Shown one piece after another: positions 42,700 to 61,301 of a stretch of 64,000 bases of DNA; the stretch's first letter is position 1, and each line of letters opens with the position of its first letter. The translations under genes were made by a program, and so were the position numbers. Origin of the DNA: Candidatus Marisimplicoccus framensis (GTDB lineage Bacteria > Bacteroidota > Bacteroidia > Flavobacteriales > Flavobacteriaceae); NCBI GenBank assembly GCA_905182065.1, contig CAJIZN010000001.1, positions 496,001 through 560,000 of the forward strand, written 5' to 3'. The notes beneath the pieces were generated by a model. That model did not search any database. It saw nothing but the letters and a program-made list of their open reading frames with translations, and had not been told where the DNA came from.

Positions 42700-43389
42700 A
42701 TGAAGTTATCACTAATCATGAATCAAAACTCATATGCGGGAAGAGAGTTTTTGAATAAGCTTCATTTAAAAAAAATTAATCTTGACGTTATTGAAATTGG
42801 AAATTATCCTGAAATTGATATTTCAGAAAACGAAAGATGTGGAGGTCTATGGAAGCCAAAATCATCAGAATTCCTTAAAAGTTTTTTCAGATTCTACAAT
42901 TTTAAATCTTTAAATTCTCCTCAACTTAATAAATTTTTAAAAGAACAACAGTATGATATATGTATACAAGGAGGAACAGGTATTTTAAAAAATAATATTA
43001 TCTCAAATTTTAAAATAGGAGTCTTAAATTTTCATCCTGGAGATTTGCCTTATTACAGAGGTTGTAGTGCTCCAGAATGGCAATTATGGGAAAAAAAACC
43101 TATTGTAGCAACCTGCCATTTAATAGATGAAGGAATTGATACAGGGCCAATACTTGAAAAGTGTAAATTAAATATCAAGATGGATTCATATTCTCATTTT
43201 AGGTCTTCTATATACCCAGGAATTGCAACTTTTTTAGTAAATACTATTATGCAGATTACTAAAAACTCAAAAAAAGTAGAAGTCAAATTTGAAAAACAAG
43301 ATGAATCAAAAGCTTGTTATAGAAGCTATATAGGAGATGATAAAATAAATAAGCTAAGGGATAGGTTTTTAAAACTTAATAGGAAGTGA
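42700..43389 (+). CDS. Formyltransferase-family protein (sugar N-formyltransferase candidate)
   Basis: 229 aa, 10-formyltetrahydrofolate-dependent transferase fold: GVLNFHPGDLPYYRGCSAPE contains the catalytic N and H, and HLIDEGIDTGPILEKC the catalytic D. The N-terminal nucleotide-type subdomain is short compared with methionyl-tRNA formyltransferase, and no C-terminal tRNA domain is present, so tRNA is unlikely. Placed after an amino-sugar transaminase, it likely formylates a sugar amine. It starts 12 bp after the transaminase and overlaps HisH by 4 nt. Confidence 0.83.
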   Translation: MKLSLIMNQNSYAGREFLNKLHLKKINLDVIEIGNYPEIDISENERCGGLWKPKSSEFLKSFFRFYNFKSLNSPQLNKFLKEQQYDICIQGGTGILKNNIISNFKIGVLNFHPGDLPYYRGCSAPEWQLWEKKPIVATCHLIDEGIDTGPILEKCKLNIKMDSYSHFRSSIYPGIATFLVNTIMQITKNSKKVEVKFEKQDESKACYRSYIGDDKINKLRDRFLKLNRK

Positions 43390-43979
43390 AGATTGGTCTT
43401 ATTCATGCTGGTTCAGGAAATTTAAAGTCAATTTCAAATGCTTTAAAGAATATTGGTTTTGCAACAGAAACCATTACCAAAACAAATCAATTTAAGGGAA
43501 TAGATACTATTATACTTCCAGGAGTGGGGACTTTTAAAAATGCAATGAATACTCTAAAAAAATTGAACCTTATAGATTCAATAAAAGATCATGTAGATAA
43601 CGAAAAGAAATTAATTGGTATTTGTTTAGGCATGCAATTGCTGTTTCAAAAGAGTTATGAATTTGGAGAAAATAAAGGAATAGGAATAATCAAGGGCGAA
43701 GTGTTGCCTTTTCAGGAATCAAAGCTAAGAGTTCCACATGTTGGTTGGAATACTTCTAGTTCTTCTGTAAATGGATTCTCTAATTTTAATGGAGATTATT
43801 ATTTTGTTCATTCATTTTATTGTGAACCAAAAAATAAAAAAGATATTTTATTTCAAACAAATTATGGCCTAAAATTTTGTTCAGCAATAAAAAAAGATAA
43901 TGTATATGGCCTTCAATTTCATCCAGAAAAAAGTCAAAAATTAGGACTTAAGTTATTGGAAAAAATTATTAATGAATAA
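43386..43979 (+). CDS. HisH-like glutaminase subunit of a sugar amidotransferase
   Basis: 197-aa class I glutamine amidotransferase. IILPGVGTF, the nucleophile Cys in LIGICLGMQLLF, and the His/Glu pair in GLQFHPEKSQKLG are complete. Start is GTG or ATG-adjacent (ATG 43386 overlaps the previous stop by 4 nt). With the adjacent HisF-like protein and the WbpG-type protein it forms the three-gene module used to put amidine groups on surface-glycan sugars, rather than serving histidine synthesis; no other his genes are near. Confidence 0.85.
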   Translation: MKIGLIHAGSGNLKSISNALKNIGFATETITKTNQFKGIDTIILPGVGTFKNAMNTLKKLNLIDSIKDHVDNEKKLIGICLGMQLLFQKSYEFGENKGIGIIKGEVLPFQESKLRVPHVGWNTSSSSVNGFSNFNGDYYFVHSFYCEPKNKKDILFQTNYGLKFCSAIKKDNVYGLQFHPEKSQKLGLKLLEKIINE

Positions 43980-44778
43980 GATTAGGTTGATACCAGTTCT
44001 TTTTATAAAGAATGGATTTATTGTTAGAAGCGAAAAATTCATTAAACATAAAATAATTGGAAATGTTGTAAATCAAGTAAGAAGATTTAATCAATGGGAT
44101 GTTGATGAATTAATTTTTATAGATATATCAAGGACTAAAACTTATGATTCTAAAAGAGATGATCATAAAGTTGAAAGAGTAGAATCTTTAGATGATATTT
44201 TAAATGTTGTTTCCTCTGAATGTTTAATGCCGTTGACTTTTGGAGGAGGAATAAGAAATCTAAGTACAATTAAAAAGTATATAAGCAATGGAGCTGACAA
44301 AGTAGTAATTAACACTTTACTTCATTTAAATCCTTCAGAGGTCAAAAGAGCAGTATCATTATTTGGTTCTCAGGCAATTGTTGCATCTTTAGATTTTAAA
44401 ATTAATAATGGTCAAGTAAATTTTTATATTGAAAATGGAACAAAAATGTTAAACACTAACTTTCAAGAAATGATTACACTATTAGAAAATCTTGGTGTTG
44501 GAGAAATTTTCCTAAATAGTATGGATAAAGATGGAACTGGTGATGGATATGACGTTGAAATAATTAAGCGCTTTGTAGAATCTACTAAATTGCCAGTTGT
44601 TGGATGTGGGGGTGCTGCATTTGTTAATGACTTTAAAGAACTTGCTTCTATAGAAGGTATATCGGGTGTAGCTGCTGGAAATTTATTTCATTTTACTGAA
44701 AATGCTTACCCCAGAGCTAAAAATAATCTTGTCAAAAATAACTTTAATTTTAGACTATACAATCCAAAATTTTTATGA
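43972..44778 (+). CDS. HisF-like cyclase subunit of a sugar amidotransferase
   Basis: 268-aa TIM-barrel related to imidazole glycerol phosphate synthase HisF: RLIPVLFIKNGFIVRSEKF in place of IPCLDVxxGR..VKG, LTFGGGIRNLSTIKKYISNG, DKVVINTLLHLNP, and LPVVGCGGAAFVNDF as phosphate-binding loops. It differs from standard HisF in the first loop, as do the HisF paralogues in O-antigen loci. It would pass ammonia from the HisH-like partner to the substrate handled by the following protein. Overlaps of 8 and 4 nt tie all three together. Confidence 0.83.
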   Translation: MNKIRLIPVLFIKNGFIVRSEKFIKHKIIGNVVNQVRRFNQWDVDELIFIDISRTKTYDSKRDDHKVERVESLDDILNVVSSECLMPLTFGGGIRNLSTIKKYISNGADKVVINTLLHLNPSEVKRAVSLFGSQAIVASLDFKINNGQVNFYIENGTKMLNTNFQEMITLLENLGVGEIFLNSMDKDGTGDGYDVEIIKRFVESTKLPVVGCGGAAFVNDFKELASIEGISGVAAGNLFHFTENAYPRAKNNLVKNNFNFRLYNPKFL

Positions 44779-45992
44779 TGAATATAATAAAGCCTAATAT
44801 ACATTTTTGTATTAATTGTTCGTTTCCGTCTAGTTCTGCTGCCCCATTAGAATTTGATGATAAAGGATTATGTTCGGGTTGTTCAACAGCAAAAGAAATT
44901 AAATCTATAGATTGGTCTCGAAGAAAAATGATGTTTGAAAGTTTAGTTGAAGAATATAGATCTAAGGATAATTATTATGATTGTATAATTCCAGTATCAG
45001 GTGGAAAAGATAGTTATTGGCAAATTCATAAAATTAAACAGTATGGGCTAAACCCTCTTTTAGTTACATACCATGGAAACAATTATACTGACGTTGGCAT
45101 GAAAAACTTAAAAAATATGAGGGAAGTCTTTAATGTTGATCATGTTTTTTTCACACCTAGTATAAATCTACTGAAAAAAATGAATAGGGTTTGTCAAAGA
45201 CTCATGGGTGATATGAATTGGCATGCTCATGCAGGTATATTTACATACCCAATAAGAGTTGCAGTAGAAAAAAAAATACCACTAATGGTATGGGGTGAGC
45301 ACGGCTTTATGGATTTAGGAGGAATGCATTCATATCATGACTTTGTGGAATTCACATATAGGTATAGACACGAGCATTGTCTTAGAGGTTATGAGTGGTA
45401 TGATATAATTAAAGCCTCTGATAAATATAATGATCCAATCTCTGTTAATGAAATGATTCAATGGAAATATCCAAGTGATATAGATATTGAAAAAGTTGGA
45501 GTCAGAGGTATATATCTTTCAAATTTTTTCAAATGGGATGCTAATATTCATGGGCCTGAAATGATCAAAAAATATGGATTTCAAGAATCTGATATTCCTT
45601 TTGAAAGAACATATAGGAAAATGTCCAATCTTGATGATATGCATGAAAATGGAATTCATGATTATATGAAGTGGATAAAATTTGGATATGGAAGAGCAAC
45701 AGATCACACCTCAAAAGATATAAGATATAATAAGATATCTAGAACAGAAGCTATAAAAGAAATTATTAAAAGAGATCATATAAAATCTAATGATTTGGAA
45801 AGATGGTTAAAATATGTTGGATGGTCAGAAAAAGAATTTGATTTAGAAGCTGATAAATTTAGAGATCCTCATGTATGGTGGATTAAAGATAATAAATGGT
45901 TTAAGAAAGATATTGATGGAAAAGAGAGAGAATATGGCCAGGTTTTTCTGGATAATGTTCAAAAAAATAAATTCTATAATGAAAGTAAATAA
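44775..45992 (+). CDS. N-acetyl sugar amidotransferase (WbpG/PseA type)
   Basis: 405 aa. A Cys-rich N-terminus (CINCSFPSSSAAP, GLCSGCSTAKEI) fits a zinc site, followed by the PP-loop ATP-pyrophosphatase motif IIPVSGGKDSYWQIHKIK. The rest (WGEHGFMDLGGMHSYHDFVE, EHCLRGYEWYDI) matches the WbpG/PseA family. Those enzymes convert an N-acetyl group of a nonulosonic or uronic sugar to acetamidino using ammonia from HisH/HisF. With PseC and PseI in the locus, an acetamidino-pseudaminic or -legionaminic acid is a reasonable inference. Confidence 0.87.
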   Translation: MMNIIKPNIHFCINCSFPSSSAAPLEFDDKGLCSGCSTAKEIKSIDWSRRKMMFESLVEEYRSKDNYYDCIIPVSGGKDSYWQIHKIKQYGLNPLLVTYHGNNYTDVGMKNLKNMREVFNVDHVFFTPSINLLKKMNRVCQRLMGDMNWHAHAGIFTYPIRVAVEKKIPLMVWGEHGFMDLGGMHSYHDFVEFTYRYRHEHCLRGYEWYDIIKASDKYNDPISVNEMIQWKYPSDIDIEKVGVRGIYLSNFFKWDANIHGPEMIKKYGFQESDIPFERTYRKMSNLDDMHENGIHDYMKWIKFGYGRATDHTSKDIRYNKISRTEAIKEIIKRDHIKSNDLERWLKYVGWSEKEFDLEADKFRDPHVWWIKDNKWFKKDIDGKEREYGQVFLDNVQKNKFYNESK

Positions 45993-47639
45993 ATGAAGAT
46001 ATTAAAGATTTATATTTTTTTATTTTCTAAATCATTTGATATACTCACACAATTAAATATAAATAATGATATTCAAAGTATACTTAAAAATCAAAGAAAA
46101 TATAATTTGTTGATTAACGATTTTATTTTGAGAAAATCTAATGAATACCTTTCAAAAAAGAAGAAAATAAATAATCAATTTTTTATAGATTTCTTGAATG
46201 AATTAAATTTAAATCATTTAAAAAAAAGGATTATAATATTTAATAAAACTAAATTTTTTGGTAAAAGACTTTTTCAAATAGTATCATTTATAGCTCTTTT
46301 TATTTTTGTTTTAAAAAAACTTTATAAAGGATTTAATAATAACTCTAAATATTATAAATTAAACAACTTTAATTATTCAGGCTCAAAAGAATTTATCCCT
46401 TGTTTTGGGTTTCCAATTCACGCATTCACTTATCAAGAAAAAACTAAATATCCTTCATCATTTATAGAATATCTTATTTTAAATAATTTAATTAAAAAGA
46501 ATAATTCATTATTATCTGTTGATGAATATGCTAGGCCAATAAAAACAGAAAAGCATTTAAACTCAAATTCAGTTAATAGAATATTCGTAAATAAAAAAAT
46601 TAATCTAAAAAAAGTTTTCAAAATACCAATAAATCTTTTTAAAACATTTCGAAACTTTAATAGAGAATTTAAAACAAAAAATTTACTCTTATTTATTTAC
46701 TATTATGAAAAAAAATCTAAGTCAAATTTAATTCTTGAATTAAGTAATACTTGTGTAAAAAAAAGAATTAACCTAAAACAGTTTTATTTTTTGACACCTT
46801 TTGATATTGGTCTATTGAAGTATGATGATAAAATAACAAATTTTAATTTTTATTCATATAGTCAAAATGAATTTATTCCACCCTCAATAAATATTCATAA
46901 TGAAATAGATAACCAAACTAACAAACTACCAATCAACAAAATATTAGAAGAGATAACTCTAGATCTTTTTTCAATGTACAGTCATAATACAATCAATCTA
47001 ACTAAGCATCTAAGTTTTTATAACAATACAGTTGAAAAGATTAGAACTAATTATGGATTATGTTTACAGAGCTGCATGTTTGAGAAAAAAGAAAGTGTTT
47101 ATTCAAACCTAGGATTTGATAAAACCATTAACATTGAATTAAATTCAAACAAAAAAAATGTTTTGTTATTTGATTTACCAATTGAATCTTATCAATCAAC
47201 ATTGGAGAGACAATTTTCGGGAGATTATTTTGGTACCGAACGTTTTATTTCATCGTTTTACAAGAGTATTATAGAAATATTTGCCTCACAAGAGGTGAAT
47301 ATATTTTTAAAACCAAAATACTCAATACACAAAGAAAATATTAGTAGTTTTTATTTAAAATTGATTAATGACTTTTCATCTAAAAATATTAATTTAGAGA
47401 TTATTAATCCATATGATAAAATCATAATTAAAGACAGAAAATTTGATATAATGATCAATCTACCCTACACTTCAACGCATCATACCCTTAAAAATCTTTC
47501 TTATAATAACTACTTCTTTGTGCCTCAGAAATATTTAAAATATTTTAAATATAAAAATAAAAACAAAAATAAAAAGATAATTGGGTCTTTTGATTTATCT
47601 AATCTTTTAAATCTTAAAAATGGGAAAAACAGGAGATAA
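45993..47639 (+). CDS. PFTS-motif-like polysaccharide protein (paralogue of 37931-39550)
   Basis: 548 aa, Asn/Lys/Phe-rich. It shares with the earlier protein GFPIHAFTYQ plus YPSSFIEYLI, VDEYARPIKTEK (VDEY versus IDEY), and C-terminally KFDIMINLPYTSTHHTLKNL, where PYTS replaces PFTS. A hydrophobic segment lies at residues ~90-110. The two genes flank the amidotransferase group, so they probably arose by duplication and perform related assembly steps. Function unknown. It starts with no gap after WbpG and overlaps the next gene by 20 nt. Confidence 0.63.
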   Translation: MKILKIYIFLFSKSFDILTQLNINNDIQSILKNQRKYNLLINDFILRKSNEYLSKKKKINNQFFIDFLNELNLNHLKKRIIIFNKTKFFGKRLFQIVSFIALFIFVLKKLYKGFNNNSKYYKLNNFNYSGSKEFIPCFGFPIHAFTYQEKTKYPSSFIEYLILNNLIKKNNSLLSVDEYARPIKTEKHLNSNSVNRIFVNKKINLKKVFKIPINLFKTFRNFNREFKTKNLLLFIYYYEKKSKSNLILELSNTCVKKRINLKQFYFLTPFDIGLLKYDDKITNFNFYSYSQNEFIPPSINIHNEIDNQTNKLPINKILEEITLDLFSMYSHNTINLTKHLSFYNNTVEKIRTNYGLCLQSCMFEKKESVYSNLGFDKTINIELNSNKKNVLLFDLPIESYQSTLERQFSGDYFGTERFISSFYKSIIEIFASQEVNIFLKPKYSIHKENISSFYLKLINDFSSKNINLEIINPYDKIIIKDRKFDIMINLPYTSTHHTLKNLSYNNYFFVPQKYLKYFKYKNKNKNKKIIGSFDLSNLLNLKNGKNRR

Positions 47640-48345
47640 CATTAGTTCCGGAAATGCTAACTGGAAATTTTCAGGAAAAATGGTCAATGATTTTGAGTCA
47701 CATGTTTCAAAATCTGTTCCAATCTATAACCGAGGACATGAATTAATTATTAAATTAAGTGATTTTTTCATTAAAGATGACTCACTTGTATACGATCTAG
47801 GATGCTCAACCGGAAAATTACTAATTGATTTAGTTAAACACAATAAACATAAAAAAAATTCAAAGTTTATTGGAGTTGATATCGAAAAAGATATGATAGA
47901 ATTTGCAAACAAACAAAAAAGTAAATCAAAATTAAACTCTAACAAACTTGAGCTTTTTCATGAAGATATTGTAAACTATCAATTAAATTCTAGCGATTTA
48001 ATAATCAGTTATTTTACAATTCAATTTATTCACCCAAAGCATCGTCAAAATTTAATTGATAAAATATATAAATCATTAAATTGGGGTGGTGCCTTTTTAT
48101 TTTTTGAAAAAGTAAGATATAATGATGCAAGATTTCAAGACATATTTACAACCTTATATAATGACTATAAATTAGATATGGGATATTCCCCTGAAGAAAT
48201 TCTAAATAAAACTAAAAGTTTAAAAGGTGTAATGGAGCCTTTTTCAACTAAAGGGAATACAGACATGCTAGAAAGGGCCGGCTTTAAAGATATTACTCCT
48301 GTTGTAACTGACATATGTTTCAAAGGGTTTTTAGCTATTAAATAG
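47620..48345 (+). CDS. CmoA-like SAM-fold protein
   Basis: 241-aa class I methyltransferase fold. The SAM loop VYDLGCSTGKLLIDL, GVDIEKDMIEFANKQK and ISYFTIQFIHPKHRQN are clear. The C-terminal part (LFFEKVRYND, KLDMGYSPEEILNKTKSL, LERAGFKDITPV) and the start (FSGKMVNDFESHVSKSVPIY) follow the pattern of CmoA, the carboxy-SAM synthase of tRNA modification. In a glycan locus next to a sugar O-methyltransferase-like gene it might supply carboxy-SAM or act as a plain methyltransferase. Key carboxylate-binding residues could not be confirmed. Confidence 0.73.
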   Translation: MGKTGDNISSGNANWKFSGKMVNDFESHVSKSVPIYNRGHELIIKLSDFFIKDDSLVYDLGCSTGKLLIDLVKHNKHKKNSKFIGVDIEKDMIEFANKQKSKSKLNSNKLELFHEDIVNYQLNSSDLIISYFTIQFIHPKHRQNLIDKIYKSLNWGGAFLFFEKVRYNDARFQDIFTTLYNDYKLDMGYSPEEILNKTKSLKGVMEPFSTKGNTDMLERAGFKDITPVVTDICFKGFLAIK

Positions 48346-48393
48346 CTTTTAGATTAAATGAAAGTTTAAACAATTCAAAATAAATTCTAATTA

Positions 48394-49443
48394 ATGGATA
48401 TAAATAGTCTGCATCAAAAATTTAAGAAAAATTCAAGATTACAAGAGGAAAACACAGAAAAAATTGACTCTAAACATATTGAAATAATTAAAAATTCAAA
48501 AGAAAATTTCAAAAATTTAGAATGGTCAAATTTTAGAAACTGGAAAGATCAAAATGATATGGGGTTAAGATATCCTATGACTTATTTATCAAAGATTTTT
48601 TTAGGGATAAAAAAAAATAAAATTATAGACTTTATACTAAAGATTCCAAGAAAGAGACTTAATCATTATTTTCATTATTCATCTATGTTAGATGATATTG
48701 AAATTGTTAAGTCTTTAGGAGGAGATTATCTATTAAATGAAAACCCACAAAATAAAACTCCAGGAGCAATAAAGTTCCCTTTGGTTGAAGGTTACTCTGT
48801 TTCATCTAGATGGTTAAGATATGTATACATATTAACCAGAATAATAAAAATGAAATTACTTAAACAAGATAGTGTTTGGCTAGATATTGGCTCATATTAT
48901 GGAGGCTTAGAAGGATTAGTTAAAAAATATTTTCCAGATATAAAAATTATTATGGTTGACTTTAACCATCAATTAGCAAGAAGCTATATATATCTAAATG
49001 AACTTTATCCTGATGCAAATCATATTTTGCCTAAACAAGTAAATTCAATTCAAAATATTGAAAGTATTCCTAAAGGCTCAATAATGTATGTAGAGATTGA
49101 GGATTTTGATAAGCTAAATAACTTTAAAATAAATCTCACAACAAACTTTTTTAGTTTGGGTGAAATGAAAAAACAAACTTTTAAAAATTATATTCAAAGT
49201 GATATAGTTCAAAATTCTGAAATAATCTATTTTGCTAACAGATATAGTAGTAGTCCTTTTTTTGAAAAAACTTATGATGATGCAATAAATATCTTCGACT
49301 ATAAAATCAATAAAAATTTAATCTATTTAGATGTTTTTCCAATTTCTCAATATCAGATAACACCAAGAAAGATTTTAAATAGAGATTTTTTTAGAAATAT
49401 TTCTAGTCAATATTTTGAAATGATTTGGAAAAATAAAAATTAG
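48394..49443 (+). CDS. Putative sugar O-methyltransferase
   Basis: 349 aa. LKQDSVWLDIGSYYGGLEGLVKKY is a SAM-binding first loop, followed by KIIMVDFNHQLARSYIYL and SIMYVEIEDFDKLNNFKI; the C-terminus (TTNFFSLGEMKKQTFKNYIQ) matches the putative sugar O-methyltransferase family found in O-antigen clusters. The long N-terminal domain (about 140 residues, SRLQEENTEKID...) is also typical. It would methylate, or with carboxy-SAM carboxymethylate, a sugar hydroxyl. The gap to CmoA-like is 48 bp. Confidence 0.72.
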   Translation: MDINSLHQKFKKNSRLQEENTEKIDSKHIEIIKNSKENFKNLEWSNFRNWKDQNDMGLRYPMTYLSKIFLGIKKNKIIDFILKIPRKRLNHYFHYSSMLDDIEIVKSLGGDYLLNENPQNKTPGAIKFPLVEGYSVSSRWLRYVYILTRIIKMKLLKQDSVWLDIGSYYGGLEGLVKKYFPDIKIIMVDFNHQLARSYIYLNELYPDANHILPKQVNSIQNIESIPKGSIMYVEIEDFDKLNNFKINLTTNFFSLGEMKKQTFKNYIQSDIVQNSEIIYFANRYSSSPFFEKTYDDAINIFDYKINKNLIYLDVFPISQYQITPRKILNRDFFRNISSQYFEMIWKNKN

Positions 49444-51515: not shown

Positions 51516-52554
51516 ATGAATATAGGAGGATTTGATTTTGAAAATACAGAAAACACATTAATTATAGCTGAAATTTCAGCTAATCATAATCAGGATATTG
51601 AAGTTGCCAAGAAGACAATTTCAGAAATAAAAAAATCTGGTGCAAATTGTGTAAAACTCCAAACATATACCCCTGATACTTTAACTATTGATTCTGACAA
51701 GGATGATTTCAAAATTAAAGATTCTATATGGAAAGGTAAGTCGCTATTCAGCCTTTACAATGAAGCATATACTCCATGGGAATGGCATAAAGAATTATTT
51801 AGTTTTGCTAAAAAAGAAGGTTTAATATGTTTTTCTTCACCATTTGACAATACTGCAGTAGATTTTTTAGAAGATTTAAAAGCACCAGCTTATAAAATTG
51901 CTTCTTTTGAAATACACGATATTCCACTTATAGATTATGCTGCATCTAAAGGGAAAACCAATTATATTATCTACAGGGGTAGCAACTCTAGCGGATATTC
52001 AACTAGCTATTGAAACATGTAAGAAAGCTGGAAATAATGAAATAATACTTCTTAAATGTACATCAAGTTATCCAGCTCCACTTGAAGATGCTAATTTAAA
52101 AATGATTCAAAAATATTCTAAGGATTTTAATGTTATAACTGGTTTGTCTGATCACACTATTGGCGATACTTGTACAATTGCTGCAGTTTCATTAGGCGCA
52201 AGAGTAATTGAAAAACATTTTATATTGGATAGAAAAATGGGAGGTCCTGATGCGTCATTCTCAATGAACCCTAAAGAATTTTCTAAAATGGTAAAAAGTA
52301 TTAGAGAAGTTGAAAAAGCATTAGGAAAAATTGATTATAATTTAACTGAAAATCAAATAAAAGGAAAAGTTTTTTCTAGGTCTTTATATGTAACTAAAGA
52401 AATAAAAAAAGGAGAAAGATTTGACAATTCAAATGTTAGATCAATAAGACCAGGTTTTGGATTACACCCTAAAGAACTGAAAAATATTATTGGAGAATAT
52501 TCAAATCAAGACATAGAAAAAGGTGAAAGATTTAGTTTAAGATTTATAAAATAA
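51516..52554 (+). CDS. pseI: Pseudaminic acid synthase, one-base insertion near 51955
   Basis: NeuB-family enzyme condensing a 6-deoxy-HexNAc sugar with phosphoenolpyruvate. LIIAEISANHNQDIEVAKKT, CVKLQTYTPDTLTID, FSSPFDNTAVDFLED, KIASFEIHD, then PIILSTGVATLADIQLAIET, ITGLSDHTIGDT and the PseI-type HFILDRKMGGPDASFSMNP are visible. One extra A in GGGAAAACC splits the frame; removal joins SKGKPIILSTG. A C-terminal SAF domain (FSRSLYVTKEIKKGERFD) is complete. About 345 aa. GGPDASFS is typical of PseI rather than NeuB or legionaminic synthases. Confidence 0.88.
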
Positions 52555-52621: not shown

Positions 52622-53501
52622 ATGGATAATAAGATTGTTAGTGTTGGATACGGTAATGTAAAAAAAGTTATAATTGGTGGGTCTAATCCTCTTGCTTACG
52701 TTGGAGGGCCCTGTGCAATAGAATCAAGAGATCATGCTTTATTTATGGCAGAGAAAATTTCTAAGATTTGTGATAAATTAGAAATTCCATGGGTGTATAA
52801 ATCTTGTTACGATAAAGATTGCCGTTCATCTCCAAATAGCTTTCATGGAGTCGGAATTGATGAGGGATTAAAAATCTTATCAGAGGTAAGAGATTTATTT
52901 GGAGTTCCTGTTGTTTCAGATTTTTCAGATCCTTCCTGGGCAGCTGCTACTGGTGAAGTTTGTGACATGGTTCAAGTACCAGCTTATCTTTGTCGTCAAA
53001 CTTCAATCTAAGGGCTGCGGCAGAAACCAAAAGACCTATTCTTTTAAAAAAGGTCAGTTTATGAGTCCATGGAATATGAAAAACTCATGTAAAAAAATCG
53101 AAGCATTTGGTGGTGATCAAATTATTTTAGCTGACAGAGGAACCTTCTTTGGTTACAATATGCTAATAAACGACATGAATAATTTCCCAATAATGGCAGA
53201 AACTGGATATCCGGTTTGTTTTGATGCTACTCACTCCGTTCAACTACCAACTTCAATGGGTAATATTTCTGGAGGTCAGAGAGAATTTGTTCCCAGTCTA
53301 GTTAGATCGGCAGTTGCAAATGGAATAAATTTATTATTTATGGAAACTCATAATGATCCTAAAAATGCTTTATCAGACGCCAACACTGTTTTAGATATTA
53401 AATACCTTGAAAATATATTATATCAAGCAAAAAAAGTCCATTCTCTTAGATTAGAATTAGAAAAAGAACTTGGACCAGACGATGTTCATAAAAATAATTA
53501 A
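52622..53501 (+). CDS. kdsA: 3-deoxy-8-phosphooctulonate synthase, two single-base deletions near 53005 and 53050
   Basis: Makes Kdo-8-phosphate from arabinose-5-phosphate and phosphoenolpyruvate. YVGGPCAIESRDHALFMAE, WVYKSCYDKDCRSSPNSFHG, VPVVSDFSDPSWAAATGEVC, MVQVPAYLCRQTS then, after a restored base, LRAAAETKRPILLKKGQ, and finally MSPWNMKNS, DRGTFFGYNML, FDATHSVQ. The two missing bases (one in TCAATCTA, one in an A run) are enough to rejoin all parts; about 293 aa. Being in this locus, it may be a paralogue dedicated to the surface glycan rather than lipid A. Confidence 0.88.
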
Positions 53502-53502
53502 T

Positions 53503-53889
53503 ATGAAAATTAAAGAAGTAATGATTACCCCAGATAAGTTTGCACAAGTTAGCCCATCCGATTTTTTTAAAGTGGCTCTAGACAAAATGAATGATTCAAA
53601 ACTTGGAATTGCATGTATTGTTGAAAACACTTCATTAAAAGGCATAATCACGGATGGTGATATTAGACGAAAATTGTTAACAGTTCAAAAACCATTTTCT
53701 GCATTGTTTAGTGATTATTCAATTGATCATGCAATTACTAATCCAACGACCTGCAATGAGAATGAAACATTAATATCAGCTGTTGAATTAATGGAAAAGA
53801 AACAAATTTGGGATCTCCCAGTTATAAATGACAATGGCGATTTGGTAGGACTTCTTCATCTTCATGCCGCAATCAAACATTTGCTTTAA
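53503..53889 (+). CDS. Stand-alone CBS-pair protein (KdsD C-terminal-like)
   Basis: 128 aa from ATG 53503, one base after KdsA. Two CBS motifs: EVMITPDKFAQVSPSDFFKV with LKGIITDGDIRRKL, then NPTTCNENETLISAVELMEK with DLPVINDNGDLVGLLHLH. This is the arrangement of the CBS half of arabinose-5-phosphate isomerase KdsD/KpsF, but the sugar-isomerase (SIS) half is absent. It may regulate KdsA or a separate isomerase, perhaps by binding a nucleotide sugar. An upstream start at 53470 would overlap KdsA by 32 nt and looks less likely. Confidence 0.77.
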   Translation: MKIKEVMITPDKFAQVSPSDFFKVALDKMNDSKLGIACIVENTSLKGIITDGDIRRKLLTVQKPFSALFSDYSIDHAITNPTTCNENETLISAVELMEKKQIWDLPVINDNGDLVGLLHLHAAIKHLL

Positions 53890-53903
53890 AAAATTATATA
53901 AAA

Positions 53904-54680
53904 ATGAAAAGAGAGTTATTAAAAAAATCATTAAGATCTAGAGAAAAATTATTTGGTGCATGGGTTTCTTATGCTGAACCATCTATAACCGAGACTTTTG
54001 CGAAAGCTGGTTTTGACTTTTTAGCTATTGACATGGAGCATTCAACTATAACTTTACCAGAGGCAAAGGCAATAATAACATCAAGTCAATCACATGGAGT
54101 TCCTTGCTTTCCAAGACCGGTATCTCATTCAAATGACTACATAAAACCTTTACTGGAATTTGGTGCTGATGGAATGTTAATCCAAATGGTCAACAACTCA
54201 GATGATGTTAAAAAGCTTATTAATCATATAAAATACCCTCCAATTGGAAACAGAAGTTATGGTGTAAATAGAGCTCAAGGTTATGGTTTTGATTTTGATA
54301 GTTATATAAATAACTGGAATAAAAATTCAATCTTTATGATTCAAGTAGAATCTATTGAAGCAGTTAAAAACATTGAATCTATTCTGTCTAATGATGAAAT
54401 AGATGGAGTAATGATAGGACCTTATGATATTTCAGGATCTCTAGGAGTTCCTGGTCAATTAGATCATCCTGATGTTATTAATGCATCAAAAAAAGTTATT
54501 GAAGCATGCGAGAAATATGGTAAAAGTTGTGGGACTCAACTTAATGATCCAAACTTAAAAAACATTGATGGTTTATTTGAATTAGGATATACTTTTGCTA
54601 TTCTAGGATCAGATTTATTTATACTCTGGAAATGGGCTGAGACTATGAAAGGTATAATGACAAATTTTAAAAATAAATAA
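53904..54680 (+). CDS. HpcH/HpaI-family class II aldolase
   Basis: 258-aa metal-dependent pyruvate aldolase fold: FGAWVSYAEPSITETFAKAG, FDFLAIDMEHSTI, PCFPRPVSHSND, IFMIQVESIEAVKNIE and GPYDISGSLGVPGQLDHPDV. Such enzymes reversibly join pyruvate to an aldehyde to give a 3-deoxy-2-keto acid. Located between KdsA/CBS and two dehydrogenases followed by KdsB, it could build or trim an ulosonic acid. Its presence in a Kdo-type activation cluster is unusual. Substrate unknown. Confidence 0.85.
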   Translation: MKRELLKKSLRSREKLFGAWVSYAEPSITETFAKAGFDFLAIDMEHSTITLPEAKAIITSSQSHGVPCFPRPVSHSNDYIKPLLEFGADGMLIQMVNNSDDVKKLINHIKYPPIGNRSYGVNRAQGYGFDFDSYINNWNKNSIFMIQVESIEAVKNIESILSNDEIDGVMIGPYDISGSLGVPGQLDHPDVINASKKVIEACEKYGKSCGTQLNDPNLKNIDGLFELGYTFAILGSDLFILWKWAETMKGIMTNFKNK

Positions 54681-55457
54681 ATGTACCTAAATAAACTTTT
54701 TAATTTAAATGGAAAAGTTGCAGCAGTAACTGGTGCGGGTGGTCATTTATGTGGAGAAATGGTTAAAGCTTATGCTCGAGTAGGCTGTAAAGTAGCAATC
54801 CTTGACTTAAGACTTGAAAAGGCAAAAAAAATAGAGAAAGAAATAAATGAAGAAGGTTTTATGGATACTATTTCACTTGAAATAGATGTCTCAGATAAAT
54901 CAAACTTTGAAAGTGTTCTAAATAAGATTGTTGACAAACTTGGAAATATAGATATTTTTATAAATGGTGCTGGAATTAATGGTTCTACCCCATTTATTGA
55001 TATTACAGAAAAAGAATGGGACTCAATAATGAATTCACAGATTAAAGGAACATTTTTTGGATGTCAAGTAATTGGAGAACACATGCTCAAAAACGGAAAG
55101 GGATCCATAATTAATATTTCATCTGCTTCTGCTGGCCCACCCCTTTCAAAAGCATTTACATATTCAGTTGCAAAGGCAGGAATAAAGAATCTAACTCAAA
55201 ATTTAGCCAGGGAATGGGGTACTAAAGGTGTTAGAGTTAATGCTATCCGTCCTGGTTTTTTTCCTACAGATTGGAATTTAAAAAATTTTATTGATGATAA
55301 AAGAAAAAAAGAAATTTTAGGACATACACCTATGAATAGATTTGGCAATCCAGATGAATTAACTGGAGCAATTTTATGGCTATCCTCAGATGCATCAGGC
55401 TTTGTAACTGGATCTGAGGTTTCTGTAGATGGTGGTTTCTCCTGTATGACAATTTAA
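54681..55457 (+). CDS. SDR-family oxidoreductase
   Basis: 258 aa classical short-chain dehydrogenase: AAVTGAGGHLCGEMVKAYAR (TGxxxGxG), DIFINGAGINGS (NAG), SIINISSASAGPPL, and the catalytic YSVAKAGIKNL (Y-x-x-x-K). C-terminal block TGSEVSVDGGF. Starts without a gap after the aldolase and is followed by a second SDR three bases later. Probably oxidises or reduces a sugar acid in the ulosonic-acid block. Confidence 0.87.
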   Translation: MYLNKLFNLNGKVAAVTGAGGHLCGEMVKAYARVGCKVAILDLRLEKAKKIEKEINEEGFMDTISLEIDVSDKSNFESVLNKIVDKLGNIDIFINGAGINGSTPFIDITEKEWDSIMNSQIKGTFFGCQVIGEHMLKNGKGSIINISSASAGPPLSKAFTYSVAKAGIKNLTQNLAREWGTKGVRVNAIRPGFFPTDWNLKNFIDDKRKKEILGHTPMNRFGNPDELTGAILWLSSDASGFVTGSEVSVDGGFSCMTI

Positions 55458-55460
55458 ATT

Positions 55461-56213
55461 ATGATAACAGATAAAGTAGCGATAGTAACTGGCGGAAATA
55501 GAGGTATAGGTCTAGGCATAACAAAAAGATTAGTTGATTCAGGATATAAAGTTTTTGTTGGCGCTCGTCAAAAGCCTGAGTTTGATAAAGAGTATGACAA
55601 CAAAGTCTTTTTTCAGCATACAGATGTTAGAGAAGAAGAAGATCATATTAAACTTATTGAATTTGCAATTAAAAAGTTTGGTAATATAGATTGCTATATA
55701 AACAATGCTGGATATTCAGAATGGATGCCAATTGATAAAATAGATGATGAGTTCTTAAGCAATATATTAAATACTAATTTAAAAGGAGCCTTTTGGGGTT
55801 CTAAGGCAGCTGCTAAATACCTTAAAAAAGGTGGATCAATTATTAACATATCCAGCCTAGCCGGTAAACGAGGAAGTAGTAATAATTCCGCATATGTAGC
55901 CTCTAAATTTGGAATGAATGGTTTGACACAGTCTTTAGCTAAGGAGCTTGGTCCAAAGGGGATAAGGGTAAATGCTGTATGTCCAGTATTAATAGCAACA
56001 AAGGGTCTGTTGGAAGCTCTAAAGACAAAACATGCACCTGGAAATGAAAATCCAGAAGAATTTATTTCAAATTTCACAAAAAATAACTCGGCATTAAATA
56101 GAATGCCTAAAAGTGAAGAAGTAGGAGACTTATGTGTTTTCTTAGCTTCAAATAAAGCTAGTGCAGTAACAGGGCAATGTATAAATATTGATTGTGGGGT
56201 ACTCCCTCAATAA
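55461..56213 (+). CDS. SDR-family oxidoreductase (second copy)
   Basis: 250 aa. VAIVTGGNRGIGLGITKRLV (TGxxxGxG), DCYINNAGYSEWMPID, SIINISSLAGKRGSS, YVASKFGMNGLTQSL (Y-x-x-x-K) and TGQCINIDCGVLPQ. It is clearly a different subtype from the preceding SDR, so the two are not a recent duplicate. Two sequential dehydrogenases could epimerise a hydroxyl through a keto intermediate. It ends three bases before KdsB. Confidence 0.87.
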   Translation: MITDKVAIVTGGNRGIGLGITKRLVDSGYKVFVGARQKPEFDKEYDNKVFFQHTDVREEEDHIKLIEFAIKKFGNIDCYINNAGYSEWMPIDKIDDEFLSNILNTNLKGAFWGSKAAAKYLKKGGSIINISSLAGKRGSSNNSAYVASKFGMNGLTQSLAKELGPKGIRVNAVCPVLIATKGLLEALKTKHAPGNENPEEFISNFTKNNSALNRMPKSEEVGDLCVFLASNKASAVTGQCINIDCGVLPQ

Positions 56214-56216
56214 AAT

Positions 56217-56981
56217 ATGAAACCAATAGTTATAATACCAGCGAGACTAGAATCTATGCGTCTACCAAGAAAAATCTTAATAGATATACTTGGCTTGCCA
56301 ATGATTGAACATGTAAGAAGACGTGTTTTGTTATCCCAAAATATTGAAGATGTTTATATTGCAACTTGTGATAATGAGATAAAAGAATGCGTTGAAAAAT
56401 TTGGGGGTAAGGTTATAATGACTAAAAAAGACCATATAAATGGCACATCTAGAGTTGCAGAAGCAGTAGAAAGTATTAAATGTGATAAAGTGATTTTAGT
56501 TCAGGGCGATGAACCCCTTTTACTTCCTTCACAATTAGATGAATTATCTTTAAAAATTCAAGATGATAATAAGCATGTTGCATGGAATGCCACATCACCT
56601 ATTGAAAATGAAGAAGAGCTTAATAGACACTCTTTTGTTAAGTGTTCTGTAATAAACTCTCAAATATTATATTGTTTTAGAAAATCTCCTAGCCACAATA
56701 ATTTTGATCTTCAAAAAAAGTATATAAGAAAAATACTTGGATTGCTAGCTTTTAGAAAAAATTTTCTAATTAAAATTTCAAAAACTAAACCAGGGTTAAT
56801 TGAACAATTAGAATCAATCGAACAACTTAGAGTTATTGAAAATAGTTACCCACTAATATCAATTCCTTTTGAAAAGTCTCAGGCGTCTATTAATGAGTCA
56901 GAAGATCTAGCAATAGTTTTAAAATTCCTTAAAAATGATAAGGAACAACAAGAAATATTTAATAAAATTTTAGCACTTTAA
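56217..56981 (+). CDS. kdsB: 3-deoxy-manno-octulosonate cytidylyltransferase
   Basis: 254 aa CMP-Kdo synthetase: IVIIPARLESMRLPRKILID, VYIATCDNEIKECVEKFGG, VIMTKKDHINGTSRVAEAVE and VILVQGDEPLLLPSQL. It activates Kdo or a related ulosonic acid with CTP for transfer. With KdsA in the same operon it makes a dedicated CMP-Kdo supply, as in group 2 capsule loci (KpsU), although the intervening aldolase and SDRs hint at a modified acid. Confidence 0.9.
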   Translation: MKPIVIIPARLESMRLPRKILIDILGLPMIEHVRRRVLLSQNIEDVYIATCDNEIKECVEKFGGKVIMTKKDHINGTSRVAEAVESIKCDKVILVQGDEPLLLPSQLDELSLKIQDDNKHVAWNATSPIENEEELNRHSFVKCSVINSQILYCFRKSPSHNNFDLQKKYIRKILGLLAFRKNFLIKISKTKPGLIEQLESIEQLRVIENSYPLISIPFEKSQASINESEDLAIVLKFLKNDKEQQEIFNKILAL

Positions 56982-56987
56982 ATTTTA

Positions 56988-58430
56988 ATGATTTTAACTG
57001 AAGAACAGTATAAGTACATATGTAGTTCTTGTGATAAGCTTCTTACTGGAAGTAAAGATTCAGTCAGGATAGCTAACGATTGGTTGCATGTTATGAGGCC
57101 ACATCCAATTTATTTTAAAAAGTACGAACATATTTTTCACACTAAAGGTTCCTTAATTACACTTATCTATATATTAAAAAATATGCTAATATATTCTGCT
57201 AAAATTTTTATCAGATTATTAAAAGCAATAAACAATAAAAGGACAAAAGTTACTGTTGATTTCAATAAATTGAACTCATTATATATATCACATTTATTAA
57301 ATATTGATCAATTAAAGGATCAAGATGATTTCTACTTTCATCAAATACCTAATAAATTCCAAGGAAATAATAAATCTTTAATGTTATTAATTAATCATAC
57401 AAATGAAAAGATAGATTTTAATAAAGCTTTTTTAAATAATAAAATTATAATTCCAAATACTTTATCTTTTTTTGAAGAATTCATGATTTCAAAAACCTTG
57501 ATAATGGATGCTTTTAGACTTGCTCTTTCTAAATGTGACTTGAAAATTAAAATAACTGCTGCTGTAGAGAGCCTATCACCTTCTTCTCATAAAAACTTAA
57601 GGGTTGGGATTTTTGTTAAACATATTATTGAGAAATTAGAACCTGACTTTTTATTTACAACTTTTGAGGGTCAGCCTTGGGAAAGAGTAGTTTATGGAAT
57701 GGCATCTAGCATAAGTGAAAAAATCAAAAAAATAGGATACCAACATGCATTATTTTTTAAAAATCAACATTCAATATCACGGCAACTAAAAAAAATGTTT
57801 AATCCTGATTATATTCTTTGTTCTGGAAAGAATAGTTATTTAAAATTTTTAAATCTAAAATTTATTGATAACAATAAAATATTATTAGTTGGATCAAACA
57901 GGTTACACTCAAGCGAATTTAAGCAACGAAAAGAGCTAAAAACTTTTTTAATTCTCCCAGAGGGAGATTTAGTTGAGTGTTTACCGTTAGTAGATTTATC
58001 AATTTCTCTTGCAGAAATGTTCATTGATATTCATTTTGTTATTAGGCTCCATCCAATAACTAATAGATTAAATCTCTTAAAACTTAGACCTAGATTAGAT
58101 AATTTTTATAAAAATTTAGAGTTATCATCAGATACATTTGACAATGATTTAGAAAGATCAGATGCCGCTATATATAGAGGCTCATCTAGTATAATAAAAG
58201 CAATTCAAAAGGGACTCTTACCTATCTACTATGATATAATTAATCAACCTAACATTGACCCTCTTTTCGACTTAAGACATTTAAAAAAGAAAATTATAGA
58301 CTCCTCAGATTTAATTAAAATCTTAAGCTCTAAACAAGAAGTTTTAGATAATCAACAAAAATTAATTGATAATATGAAATCCTATTTTACGGAATTCAAT
58401 CATAAAGAATTAAATAAAATAATAACTTGA
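56988..58430 (+). CDS. Surface-carbohydrate biosynthesis protein, GT-B-like
   Basis: 480 aa. The middle holds EPDFLFTTFEGQPWERVVYG and KIGYQHALFFKNQHSISRQL, the C-terminal half FLILPEGDLVECLPLVDLSI, FVIRLHPITNR and AAIYRGSSSIIKAIQKGLLP, all of which fit the two Rossmann halves of a GT-B-like family seen in surface-carbohydrate loci (LPEG...E, RLHP, RGSS.I..A...G..P). It directly follows KdsB, so a CMP-ulosonate transferase is plausible. I could not name the family firmly. Confidence 0.66.
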   Translation: MILTEEQYKYICSSCDKLLTGSKDSVRIANDWLHVMRPHPIYFKKYEHIFHTKGSLITLIYILKNMLIYSAKIFIRLLKAINNKRTKVTVDFNKLNSLYISHLLNIDQLKDQDDFYFHQIPNKFQGNNKSLMLLINHTNEKIDFNKAFLNNKIIIPNTLSFFEEFMISKTLIMDAFRLALSKCDLKIKITAAVESLSPSSHKNLRVGIFVKHIIEKLEPDFLFTTFEGQPWERVVYGMASSISEKIKKIGYQHALFFKNQHSISRQLKKMFNPDYILCSGKNSYLKFLNLKFIDNNKILLVGSNRLHSSEFKQRKELKTFLILPEGDLVECLPLVDLSISLAEMFIDIHFVIRLHPITNRLNLLKLRPRLDNFYKNLELSSDTFDNDLERSDAAIYRGSSSIIKAIQKGLLPIYYDIINQPNIDPLFDLRHLKKKIIDSSDLIKILSSKQEVLDNQQKLIDNMKSYFTEFNHKELNKIIT

Positions 58431-59293: not shown

Positions 59294-60309
59294 TTTTAAT
59301 TGACGCAATATATATTCATACTCACGGAGGGTTAACAATCTTAGATTCTTTTATAAATGGAATAGAAGAAAACCCTAGTGTCGATATAAATAATTTTCAT
59401 TTTTTTATTGATGATAGAATAGACATATCTAAGACTAAAAGAATAAAAAACTATTCAATTGAACTTGTTAGGGCTAATCATTTTAATAGGAAGAAAGCAT
59501 ATAAGAAAAAAATTAATTTAGCAACTAAAATAGTTTGTCTAGCAAATATACCTCCACCTATTAAGTCATCAAAACCTGTATATATATACTTTCACAATTT
59601 ACTGCTGCTAGATAATAAAATAACATATGTCACTCCTTACTATTTTATCTTAAATAAACTTAAACTGCAATACATTAAATTTTTTAAACATAAATTTTAT
59701 AAGTGGGTAGTTCAGACAAGTTTTATGAAAAATAAATTATCTGAAATATTAAAAATTGACAAAAAAAGTATTAATATATATCCCTTTTATTCCAATGAAG
59801 ATATAAACTTCAAAGAAAAAGACTTTACTAGTAAATCAATTAATTTTTTATGTGTAACGAGTAGCTCAAAACATAAGAATTTAAATAATCTTGTTAAATC
59901 TTTTATGAAAGCAAAATTAGATGTAAAAAAACAGTTTACTCTTTTTATCACAACAAATGGAAATGATATAATTAAAGAAAACATAAAGATTATTTATTTA
60001 GGCCATATTAAACGGGGTGAAATTATAAGTTATTATTCAAAATCACATTTTGTTATTTTACCATCTTTAATAGAGAGCTTTGGACTCCCCATTATTGAAG
60101 GAATAAAATCTGGCTCAAATGTTTTAATTTCTAATATAGATTCATTAAAAGAAATATGTGTACCATCAATATCTTTTAACCCAACAAGCACTAAAGATAT
60201 AGTTTCAGCTATAGAAATAGCTGGAAGTTTATCTTATCAAGAAGAATCAATTCTTACGATTAAAAATGAAATCAATAACTTTATAAATCTAATTAACCGC
60301 GATGTTTAA
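59290..60309 (+). CDS. Glycosyltransferase family 4-like
   Basis: 339 aa GT-B glycosyltransferase. The C-terminal half has FLCVTSSSKHKNLNNLVKSF, IKIIYLGHIKRGEIISYYSK and the EX7E-type nucleotide site VILPSLIESFGLPIIEGIKS. The N-terminal half starts with ILIDAIYIHTHGGLTILDSF, replacing the usual GG-loop. Retaining transferase; sugar unknown. It is coupled to its neighbours by 4- and 8-nt overlaps. Confidence 0.85.
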   Translation: MILIDAIYIHTHGGLTILDSFINGIEENPSVDINNFHFFIDDRIDISKTKRIKNYSIELVRANHFNRKKAYKKKINLATKIVCLANIPPPIKSSKPVYIYFHNLLLLDNKITYVTPYYFILNKLKLQYIKFFKHKFYKWVVQTSFMKNKLSEILKIDKKSINIYPFYSNEDINFKEKDFTSKSINFLCVTSSSKHKNLNNLVKSFMKAKLDVKKQFTLFITTNGNDIIKENIKIIYLGHIKRGEIISYYSKSHFVILPSLIESFGLPIIEGIKSGSNVLISNIDSLKEICVPSISFNPTSTKDIVSAIEIAGSLSYQEESILTIKNEINNFINLINRDV

Positions 60310-61301
60310 AAATAAAAAACTATTAATTACTGGAGGATCAGGATCTTTTGGTAATGCTGTACTTGATAAATTTCTTTCATCTGAGATATCAGAAATAAGA
60401 ATTTTTTCAAGAGATGAAAAAAAACAGCATGATATGAGAGTGAAATATAATAATCCAAAAATTAAATTTTTTATTGGAGATGTAAGAAGTAAAGAAAGCA
60501 TAAGACCTGCAATGAATGGTGTTGACTTTGTTTTTCATGCTGCTGCTCTAAAGCAAGTTCCCTCATGTGAATTCTTTCCTATTGAGGCTGTAAAAACAAA
60601 TATTTTAGGAACTGAAAATGTTCTAACTGTTGCAATTGAGTATAACGTTAAAAAAGTTATATGCTTAAGCACAGATAAAGCTGTTTACCCAATCAATGCA
60701 ATGGGAGTGTCAAAAGCAATGATGGAAAAGACATTTGTTGCAAAATCCAGAAATACAAATGATACTGTAATCTGTGGAACTCGTTATGGAAATGTTATGG
60801 CCTCTCGAGGGTCTGTTATTCCACATTTCTTTAAACAGATTAAAGATGGAAAAACCATAACTGTAACTGATCCTGAAATGACTAGATTCATGATGACACT
60901 TGAGGATGCTGTAGAATCTGGTATTATATGCTTTTAAAAATGGCAATCCTGGTGATATTTTCGTTCAAAAATCACCAGCCTCAACAATTGGACTGCTTGC
61001 TGTCACCATGAAAGAGATATATAAATCAAAAGTATCTATTGAAAATATAGGAATCCGTCATGCTGAAAAAGTCCACGAAACTCTACTTTCAAAAGAAGAA
61101 AGAATTATTTCAGAAGATCTAGGGGACTATTTTAGAGTTCCATCGGATAATAGAGATCTCAATTACAATAAATATTTTTCTGAAGGAAATTCGTCAATTG
61201 ATTTGTTAGAATACAATTCTTCAAACACTAGACAGCTTGAGAAAATCGAATTAAAAAAATTATTAGCTAAGATAGGGTATAGTGGTTCAATCAAAAAGTA
61301 G
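60302..61301 (+). CDS. UDP-GlcNAc 4,6-dehydratase/5-epimerase (CapE/WbjB type), one-base insertion near 60914
   Basis: First step of UDP-L-FucNAc synthesis. KKLLITGGSGSFGNAVLDKF, VFHAAALKQVPSCEFFPIEA, CLSTDKAVYPINAMGVSKAM and TRYGNVMASRGSVIPHFFKQ match CapE; the tyrosine of the usual YxxxK is a Met (MGVSK), as in CapE. The frame stops at 60937, but removing one A from GTAGAATCT gives VDLVLYAFKNGNPGDIFVQK and continues to 61301 (ending GYSGSIKK), about 333 aa. It overlaps the previous gene by 8 nt. Confidence 0.88.

What the first reader, a model, noticed from the sequence alone, without database searches (positions are those of the whole stretch)
52622..58430. Candidate undescribed ulosonic-acid branch: KdsA, CBS-only protein, pyruvate aldolase, two SDRs, KdsB, new transferase
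This tightly spaced block has KdsA and KdsB at its ends but inserts a CBS-only regulator, an HpcH/HpaI aldolase and two unlike dehydrogenases. Plain Kdo needs none of these. The set could make a modified or epimerised Kdo, or a different 3-deoxy-2-keto acid, activated by KdsB and transferred by the GT-B-like protein that follows. I know of no described pathway with this gene order.
Basis: inference. Interest (0 to 1): 0.72.

Follow-up and report, generated by a model that had tools for sequence, protein, structure and literature searches.

The report
Mobile cassette for Kdo-like sugar acid
A compact set of genes, found in unrelated bacteria, carries altered versions of the two key enzymes that make the outer-membrane sugar Kdo, next to extra sugar-modifying enzymes, and so probably makes a different, still unidentified sugar acid for cell-surface polysaccharides.

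Summary
The genes are as reported: KdsA (frameshifted here), a KdsD-like CBS-pair protein, an HpcH/HpaI aldolase, two SDRs, KdsB and a GT-B-fold protein, tightly spaced. The set recurs in Bacteroidota, alpha-, gamma- and a 'delta'proteobacterium and Prochlorococcus; 11 of 18 loci keep the whole order, 5 with nothing inserted. The window genome also has ordinary KdsA, KdsB and KdsD elsewhere.

Block KdsA (KdsA*) is one clade (100/100): all 21 full-length copies have CYDKDCR where 37 of 38 ordinary rows have KANR. Block KdsB lost published Kdo-site motifs and a metal Asp (17 of 17). Two loci of the Prochlorococcus family have KdsA*-CBS-KdsB* without aldolase or SDRs, so that is the core and aldolase-SDR1-SDR2 an add-on. 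Five genomes of that family and two Devosia show no KpsF/KdsD isomerase domain.

Most likely: a horizontally moving route to a CMP-activated 3-deoxy-2-ulosonic acid other than Kdo, with tailoring enzymes. Acceptor, product and the tailoring role are inferred, not shown. Against: 13 of 15 full-length KdsA* still pass the KDO8P-synthase family cut-off. The paper searches made here found no description.

The parts
52622..53501 (+). KdsA* (variant KDO8P synthase), split by a frameshift: pieces 52622-53011 and 52899-53501 (homology of the second from about 53019)
   Evidence: both pieces match DAHP_synth_1 and KDO8P_synth. First piece carries KSCYDKDCRSS where ordinary KdsA has KANR. One open frame in relatives, e.g. 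L026.
53503..53889 (+). CBS-pair protein, 128 aa, related to the C-terminal half of KdsD/KpsF but without the SIS isomerase domain
   Evidence: two CBS domains, kpsF positions 155-268, 71 bits. Next to KdsA* in 20 of 21 genomes by HMM and as a partial tblastn match in the 21st (L038).
53904..54680 (+). ALD, HpcH/HpaI-type class II pyruvate aldolase
   Evidence: Arg of R[PQ]V, Glu of QxE and Asp of GPxD kept in 19 of 19.
54681..55457 (+). SDR1, classical SDR nearest D-mannonate oxidoreductase/gluconate 5-dehydrogenase/KduD; NAD-type by sequence
   Evidence: 251.9 bits to PRK08277, cut-off 281; Asp at the end of beta2 in 18 of 18.
55461..56213 (+). SDR2, classical SDR, NADP-type by sequence
   Evidence: Arg after beta2 and a basic residue in the Gly motif in 16 of 16.
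56217..56981 (+). KdsB* (variant CMP-ulosonate synthetase)
   Evidence: altered sugar-site motifs and Asn for the metal Asp in 17 of 17.
56988..58430 (+). GT480, GT-B-fold putative glycosyltransferase with no Pfam or NCBIfam match
   Evidence: directly after KdsB* in 9 of 15 loci that hold KdsB*.

Best explanation
The block is a horizontally moving pathway that makes a CMP-activated 3-deoxy-2-ulosonic acid other than Kdo for a surface polysaccharide. Inferred steps: KdsA* condenses PEP with a sugar phosphate other than D-arabinose 5-phosphate (ribose 5-phosphate or a hexose phosphate are candidates); a KdsC-type phosphatase, near the block in some relatives and presumably shared in trans here, removes phosphate; the CBS protein senses a nucleotide or the CMP-sugar and regulates KdsA* or KdsB*; KdsB* activates the acid with CTP; a GT-B transferase adds it to the glycan. 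Where present, aldolase-SDR1-SDR2 tailors the free 2-keto-3-deoxy acid before activation, most simply by NAD-linked oxidation (SDR1) and NADPH-linked reduction (SDR2) that inverts a hydroxyl, with the aldolase resetting C4 or removing the wrong isomer. Shown: the genes, their linkage, the separate subfamilies and the residue changes. Not shown: every reaction.
For: KdsA* is one clade, 100/100, on a 0.98 stem among 59 KdsA sequences (the group was labelled by the motif CYDKDCRS, and it equals the KdsA genes linked to the CBS gene). 37 of 38 other rows have KANR, one KDNR; 42 of 42 readable KdsA of viral contigs have KANR. In a N. meningitidis KdsA model, Lys55, Asn57 and Arg58 lie at the ligand (PMC6650799, passages). 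KdsB*: of the motifs VNxQGDEP, FSR and RHIGVYAYR (PMC7717453, section 18), Asn is Leu and Ser is Phe in 17 of 17, and HxGxY is gone in 17 of 17 (kept in 8 of 8 ordinary rows); the metal Asp (D219 in PMC3149649, passages; column assigned by me) is Asn in 17 of 17 and Asp in 5 of 5 readable ordinary rows. KdsB* passes the TIGR00466 cut-off in 0 of 17. The genome has ordinary KdsA, KdsB and KdsD as well. Core without aldolase/SDRs. No KpsF/KdsD SIS match at E 1e-8 in 5 genomes of the Prochlorococcus family and 2 Devosia; in the three of these seven tested, KdsA* is the only KDO8P synthase match. Distances among six parts co-vary.
Against: No substrate or product was tested. 13 of 15 full-length KdsA* pass the KDO8P synthase equivalog cut-off (314 bits; range 306-328), and the window KdsB passes one Kdo-cytidylyltransferase subfamily cut-off. 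PMC7717453 notes that Chlamydia KdsB, too, departs from some of these motifs. Most genomes are drafts, so absence of KdsD or ordinary KdsA is weak (G391 and G397 have ordinary KdsA and KdsB but show no KdsD); isomerases unlike KpsF would be missed. 10 of 17 hosts keep ordinary KdsA and 7 of 21 have KdsD, so A5P exists there. Of the fixed KdsA* differences, His75 replaces Arg in the proteobacterial rows but Thr or others in Bacteroidota rows. The tailoring role of ALD/SDRs rests on family resemblance and cofactor rules that I recall.
Confidence: 0.6

Rival explanations
1. Ordinary CMP-Kdo, made by a diverged second KdsA/KdsB set for capsule or O-antigen, as KpsU duplicates KdsB in E. coli; aldolase and SDRs serve another part of the same glycan.
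For: 13 of 15 full-length KdsA* pass the KDO8P synthase cut-off; KdsC-type phosphatases lie near the block in several relatives and 5 of 5 examined pass the YrbI-family cut-off; the window KdsB passes a Kdo-cytidylyltransferase subfamily cut-off, 202 against 193 bits; hosts such as the window genome have KdsD; PMC3149649 (passages) describes KdsB/KpsU as such a pair.
Against: Acceptor motif and KdsB sugar-site motifs replaced in every block member read; 0 of 17 KdsB* pass TIGR00466; several hosts show no KdsD.
Confidence: 0.25
2. The aldolase is the main chain builder: pyruvate plus a sugar aldehyde gives the ulosonic acid that KdsB* activates, and KdsA* makes a second product.
For: HpcH-type aldolases 35-38% identical to this one also stand near NeuA- or KdsB-like cytidylyltransferases in six other polysaccharide-type loci without KdsA* (L016-L020, L022).
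Against: KdsA*-CBS-KdsB* without aldolase in two loci whose genomes lack it.
Confidence: 0.1
3. ALD, SDR1 and SDR2 make a substituent (for example an acyl or ether group) or a different sugar of the same polysaccharide and are only co-transferred with KdsA*/KdsB*.
For: Methyl-, acyl- and other transferases are inserted in the same stretch in single loci; the core exists without the module.
Against: ALD-SDR1-SDR2 sit between CBS and KdsB* in 11 of 18 loci, from several phyla, and their distances co-vary with those of KdsA* (r 0.79-0.82), though common descent alone would do this.
Confidence: 0.25

Closest known systems
Canonical CMP-Kdo pathway (KdsD-KdsA-KdsC-KdsB)
   Same: KdsA- and KdsB-family enzymes, KdsC-type phosphatase near them in some relatives, CBS pair like the KdsD C-terminus
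   Different: KANR motif replaced, KdsB sugar-site motifs replaced, no SIS isomerase domain in the block, aldolase and two SDRs added
Kdo8N pathway of Shewanella (KdnA/KdnB; recalled, not read)
   Same: Kdo-family sugar changed before CMP activation, with an oxidoreductase
   Different: No aminotransferase in the block; SDRs and a pyruvate aldolase instead; KdsA is itself altered here
Nonulosonic acid pathways (NeuB/PseI, NeuA/PseF)
   Same: PEP-dependent 3-deoxy-2-ulosonic acid plus CMP activation; a PseI gene lies just upstream
   Different: Synthase belongs to the KdsA, not the NeuB, family
HpcH/HpaI, GarL, YfaU/RhmA aldolases and KduD/gluconate 5-dehydrogenases
   Same: Family and catalytic motifs; characterised members act on 2-keto-3-deoxy or other sugar acids (recalled)
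   Different: Aldolase far under the equivalog cut-offs (148 against 369 bits for HpaI); biosynthetic gene context

Membership tests
KDO8P synthase (KdsA) fold family | KDO8P_synth/DAHP_synth_1 match and the metal-site residues Cys (GPC), His (ATHS), Glu (ME[TV]H), Asp (LSD/FSD); residue roles recalled | tested here: met
   C31, H205, E242, D253 invariant in 10 of 10 aligned
Canonical A5P-using KdsA | KANR acceptor motif | tested here: not met
   CYDKDCR in the window piece and in all 21 full-length KdsA*; KANR in 37 of 38 other rows
Canonical A5P-using KdsA | TIGR01362 equivalog cut-off 314 bits | tested here: inconclusive
   Window pieces 125 and 175 bits; full-length KdsA* in relatives 306-328, 13 of 15 over the cut-off
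Canonical Kdo pathway | A5P isomerase (SIS domain) supplying A5P, in the block | tested here: not met
   CBS pair only in the block; full KpsF/KdsD elsewhere in 7 of 21 host genomes, own included
CMP-Kdo synthetase (KdsB) | Cytidylyltransferase family match | tested here: met
   CTP_transf_3 140 bits; NF003952 202 against 193
CMP-Kdo synthetase (KdsB) | TIGR00466 equivalog cut-off, motifs FSR and RHIGVYAYR, metal Asp | tested here: not met
   132 against 155.2 bits, 0 of 17 over it; motifs replaced and Asn for Asp in 17 of 17
HpcH/HpaI class II pyruvate aldolase | Arg, Glu and Asp of the pyruvate/metal site (roles recalled) | tested here: met
   R[PQ]V, QxE and GPxD in 19 of 19
Kdo8N pathway | Aminotransferase with an alcohol dehydrogenase of the KdnB type (recalled) | tested here: not met
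   No aminotransferase among the block genes
Kdo transferase | CMP-sugar-dependent transfer activity | not testable with these tools
   Only the GT-B fold is predicted

The most novel reading that the evidence does not exclude
KdsA* and KdsB* are a third lineage of ulosonic-acid synthase and activator, beside Kdo and the NeuB-type nonulosonic acids. They use an acceptor other than arabinose 5-phosphate and give a sugar acid not yet described, present even in picocyanobacteria that may lack Kdo. Aldolase-SDR1-SDR2 converts it to a second stereoisomer.
Probability: 0.4. Interest if true: 0.8.

Novelty: new variant of a known kind. Interest (0 to 1): 0.62.

Why it matters
Family searches name these genes KdsA and KdsB, and readers will infer Kdo. 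If they make another sugar acid, surface glycans of these bacteria, Prochlorococcus among them, are mis-assigned, and a new pair of sugar-acid enzymes with an easily recognised signature (CYDKDCR) becomes available for testing and for sugar synthesis.

Tried and rejected
Rejected: catabolic aldolase cluster (in the orthologous loci it lies with KdsA*/KdsB* and polysaccharide genes); chance neighbourhood (recurs across phyla; 0 of 9 weak-aldolase control loci have KdsA or CBS); altered motif as decay of a frameshifted gene (the motif is the same in unbroken relatives); plasmids or phages as carriers (all KdsA matches under 60%, at most 47% among those listed; of 43 viral-contig loci 0 have the motif, one not readable).

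(0 of 248) could not have found the window's own frameshifted gene. In one search (86 of 118 genomes with a KdsA match) the motif was read for L045-L073 and the own genome only. One search finds only sequences that match its two peptide patterns. The tree is rooted at the midpoint for drawing only.
Full report
What is there. On the + strand, 52622-58430 holds KdsA (two frames), a 128-aa CBS-pair protein, an HpcH/HpaI aldolase (ALD), two classical SDRs, a KdsB-family cytidylyltransferase and a 480-aa protein (GT480) without a Pfam or NCBIfam match. Gaps are 14 bases or less. The KdsA frame breaks near 53010-53019; PseI (51516-52554), FnlA (60302-61301) and the genome's second KdsA and KdsB are also split, so assembly indels are the likely cause. 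The genome is 1.23 Mb in two contigs, 87.6% complete.

Conservation. One scan of genome contigs with ALD gave 19 loci; 18 (L025-L042) are 55-74% identical and one (L043, 28%) is not an orthologue. Of the 18, KdsA is in 16, CBS in 16, SDR1 in 17, SDR2 in 15, KdsB in 15, and GT480 directly after KdsB in 9. The order KdsA-CBS-ALD-SDR1-SDR2-KdsB is complete in 11 of 18; in 5 of these (L028, L029, L035, L036, L040) nothing is inserted, in 6 (L025, L026, L027, L030, L037, L042) other genes are. In L033 KdsA-CBS lies downstream, in L039 SDR2-KdsB-GT480 is on the other strand, L032, L038 and L041 are partial, and L031 and L034 lack KdsA nearby; but the genomes of L031 and L034 have a block-type KdsA next to a CBS gene elsewhere. 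Hosts by record title: Flavobacteriaceae/Bacteroidetes, Thioglobus, Hyphomicrobiales, Devosia, Tabrizicola, SAR116, other Alphaproteobacteria, a 'Deltaproteobacterium' and Prochlorococcus. Nine loci with 29-39%-identical aldolases have no KdsA or CBS (0 of 9), though two have a KdsB-like gene. Pairwise distances of the six parts co-vary over 13 loci: r 0.73-0.87 for pairs without KdsB and 0.47-0.61 with KdsB, at most 3 of 2000 shuffles as high; common descent alone would give this. KdsA* is rare: 1 of 385 genomes in the class of the Tabrizicola host, that host itself; 5 of 300 in the Prochlorococcus family, centre included; 0 of 248 relatives of the window genome, at least 19 of them of the same genus, with the window's own frameshifted copy below the cut. 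Patchy distribution and close similarity between phyla point to horizontal transfer.

A second, altered KdsA. The window genome has an ordinary KdsA with KANR, an ordinary KdsB and a full KdsD. Ordinary KdsA is found beside the block type in 10 of 17 host genomes searched. Block KdsA (KdsA*) has CYDKDCR in the window piece and in all 21 full-length copies linked to the block; of 38 other rows, 37 have KANR and one (L070, a long branch) KDNR. In the tree the motif-bearing rows, labelled by that motif, form one clade with 100/100 support and a stem of 0.98 changes per site. Other differences fixed between 15 KdsA* and 9 ordinary KdsA of the same genomes include S62C, T69S, H102S and N256T; His75 of KdsA* is Arg in 8 of those 9 but Thr, Arg or other in the Bacteroidota rows. 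PMC6650799 (passages) places Lys55, Asn57 and Arg58 of the N. meningitidis enzyme at the ligand in modelling; I take these to be the K, N and R of KANR. The Arg, which I recall as a phosphate ligand, is kept, so the acceptor is probably still a sugar phosphate. Metal-site residues are kept (10 of 10). Against a new specificity: 13 of 15 full-length KdsA* pass the KDO8P synthase cut-off of 314 bits (306-328).

A matching altered KdsB. PMC7717453 (section 18 and passages) names VNxQGDEP as nucleotide motif and FSR and RHIGVYAYR as substrate motifs of KdsB, and notes that Chlamydia KdsB departs from some of them. In KdsB* the Asn is Leu and the Ser of FSR is Phe in 17 of 17; HxGxY reads K[IV]LG in 15 and KIQG in 2 of 17, against H-x-G-x-Y in 8 of 8 ordinary rows. 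PMC3149649 (passages) calls D219 strictly conserved as a magnesium ligand; the column that I assign to it is Asn in 17 of 17 KdsB* and Asp in 5 of 5 readable ordinary rows. None of 17 KdsB* passes the TIGR00466 cut-off, while 7 ordinary copies do.

The core and the add-on. Searching with KdsA* instead of ALD found four more genomes in the Prochlorococcus family. L150 reads KdsC-KdsA*-CBS-KdsB*; L148 reads KdsA*-CBS-KdsB* with a KdsC about 7 kb upstream; neither has an aldolase or SDR in the stretch read. L149 reads KdsC-KdsA*-CBS-ALD-SDR1-SDR2-KdsB*; L151 has KdsA*-CBS and no KdsB* in 19.9 kb. ALD is absent from the genomes of L148, L150 and L151 at E 1e-5. KdsB* of L148, L149 and L150 has the same motif changes. 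KdsC-like genes lie in L031, L032, L034, L035, L036 and L040 too; 5 of 5 examined pass the YrbI-family cut-off. So I take the core to be KdsA*-CBS-KdsB*, often with KdsC, and ALD-SDR1-SDR2 to be a module set between CBS and KdsB*.

Acceptor. Full-length KpsF/KdsD passes its cut-off in 7 of 21 host genomes. Five genomes of the Prochlorococcus family and two Devosia show only the CBS half at E 1e-8; in the three of these seven that were tested (G395, G396, G400) KdsA* is the only KDO8P synthase match. For G946 the contig is 1.92 Mb of a 1.9-Mb genome, so incompleteness is unlikely there. This argues that KdsA* does not need arabinose 5-phosphate. Against it: most of the rest are drafts, and G391 and G397 have ordinary KdsA and KdsB but show no KdsD.

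Tailoring enzymes. ALD keeps the Arg, Glu and Asp of the pyruvate/metal site in 19 of 19 but is far under the aldolase equivalog cut-offs. SDR1 resembles D-mannonate oxidoreductase, gluconate 5-dehydrogenase and KduD, under their cut-offs, and has Asp after beta2 in 18 of 18; SDR2 has Arg there and a basic residue in the Gly motif in 16 of 16. By the usual SDR rule (recalled) this means NAD for SDR1 and NADP for SDR2, as expected for oxidation followed by reduction. Methyltransferases (L026, L037, L042; a NanM-like one in L039), FkbM-domain genes (L030) and an MBOAT acyltransferase (L025) are inserted in individual loci, so the sugar or its glycan may be further decorated.

GT480. AlphaFold2 pLDDT 86.9, pTM 0.87; Foldseek's best PDB matches are GT-B glycosyltransferases and NeuC-type epimerases at 8-14% identity among the 50 listed. 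That fits a glycosyltransferase but does not name donor or acceptor.

Literature. The listings of paper searches (PMC open subset only) showed no description of this gene set, of CYDKDCR-type KdsA, or of a Kdo-epimer pathway. Subscription papers are not covered, and I opened four papers only (PMC6650799, PMC3052366, PMC3149649: passages; PMC7717453: passages and one section).

Verdict. It is a new variant of the ulosonic-acid pathway kind, with a clear sequence signature and simple assays that would settle it.

Noticed in passing
It may be an aldolase-based CMP-sugar route of its own.
   Followed up: partly
window 51516-52554, 52622-53501, 60302-61301: PseI, KdsA and FnlA are each split, as are the housekeeping KdsA and KdsB of this genome: probable indel errors of the assembly.
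   Followed up: partly
window 47620-49443 and L030:2467-4266: A methyltransferase and a NanM-like sugar O-methyltransferase of the window have homologues (55% and 45%) directly upstream of KdsA* in the Thioglobus locus, suggesting transfer of a longer stretch.
   Followed up: partly
window 43386-45992: Genes that look like HisH, HisF and WbpG in a row (named by eye), resembling the set that adds acetamidino groups to nonulosonic acids (recalled), near PseI.
   Followed up: no
window 37931-39550 and 45993-47639: Two large proteins of 539 and 548 aa with similar 'FPFTSTH'/'LPYTSTH' stretches near the end; the second has no Pfam match, the first was not scanned.
   Followed up: no
L182-L224 (IMG/VR): 43 viral-contig loci encode KdsA-family proteins, 30-44% identical to KdsA*; the 42 readable ones are of the ordinary KANR type.
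   Followed up: partly
G395, G396 (genomes of the Devosia loci L035, L036): KdsA* is the only KDO8P synthase match, and no KpsF/KdsD isomerase domain is found at E 1e-8; ordinary Kdo may be absent from these Devosia.
   Followed up: partly
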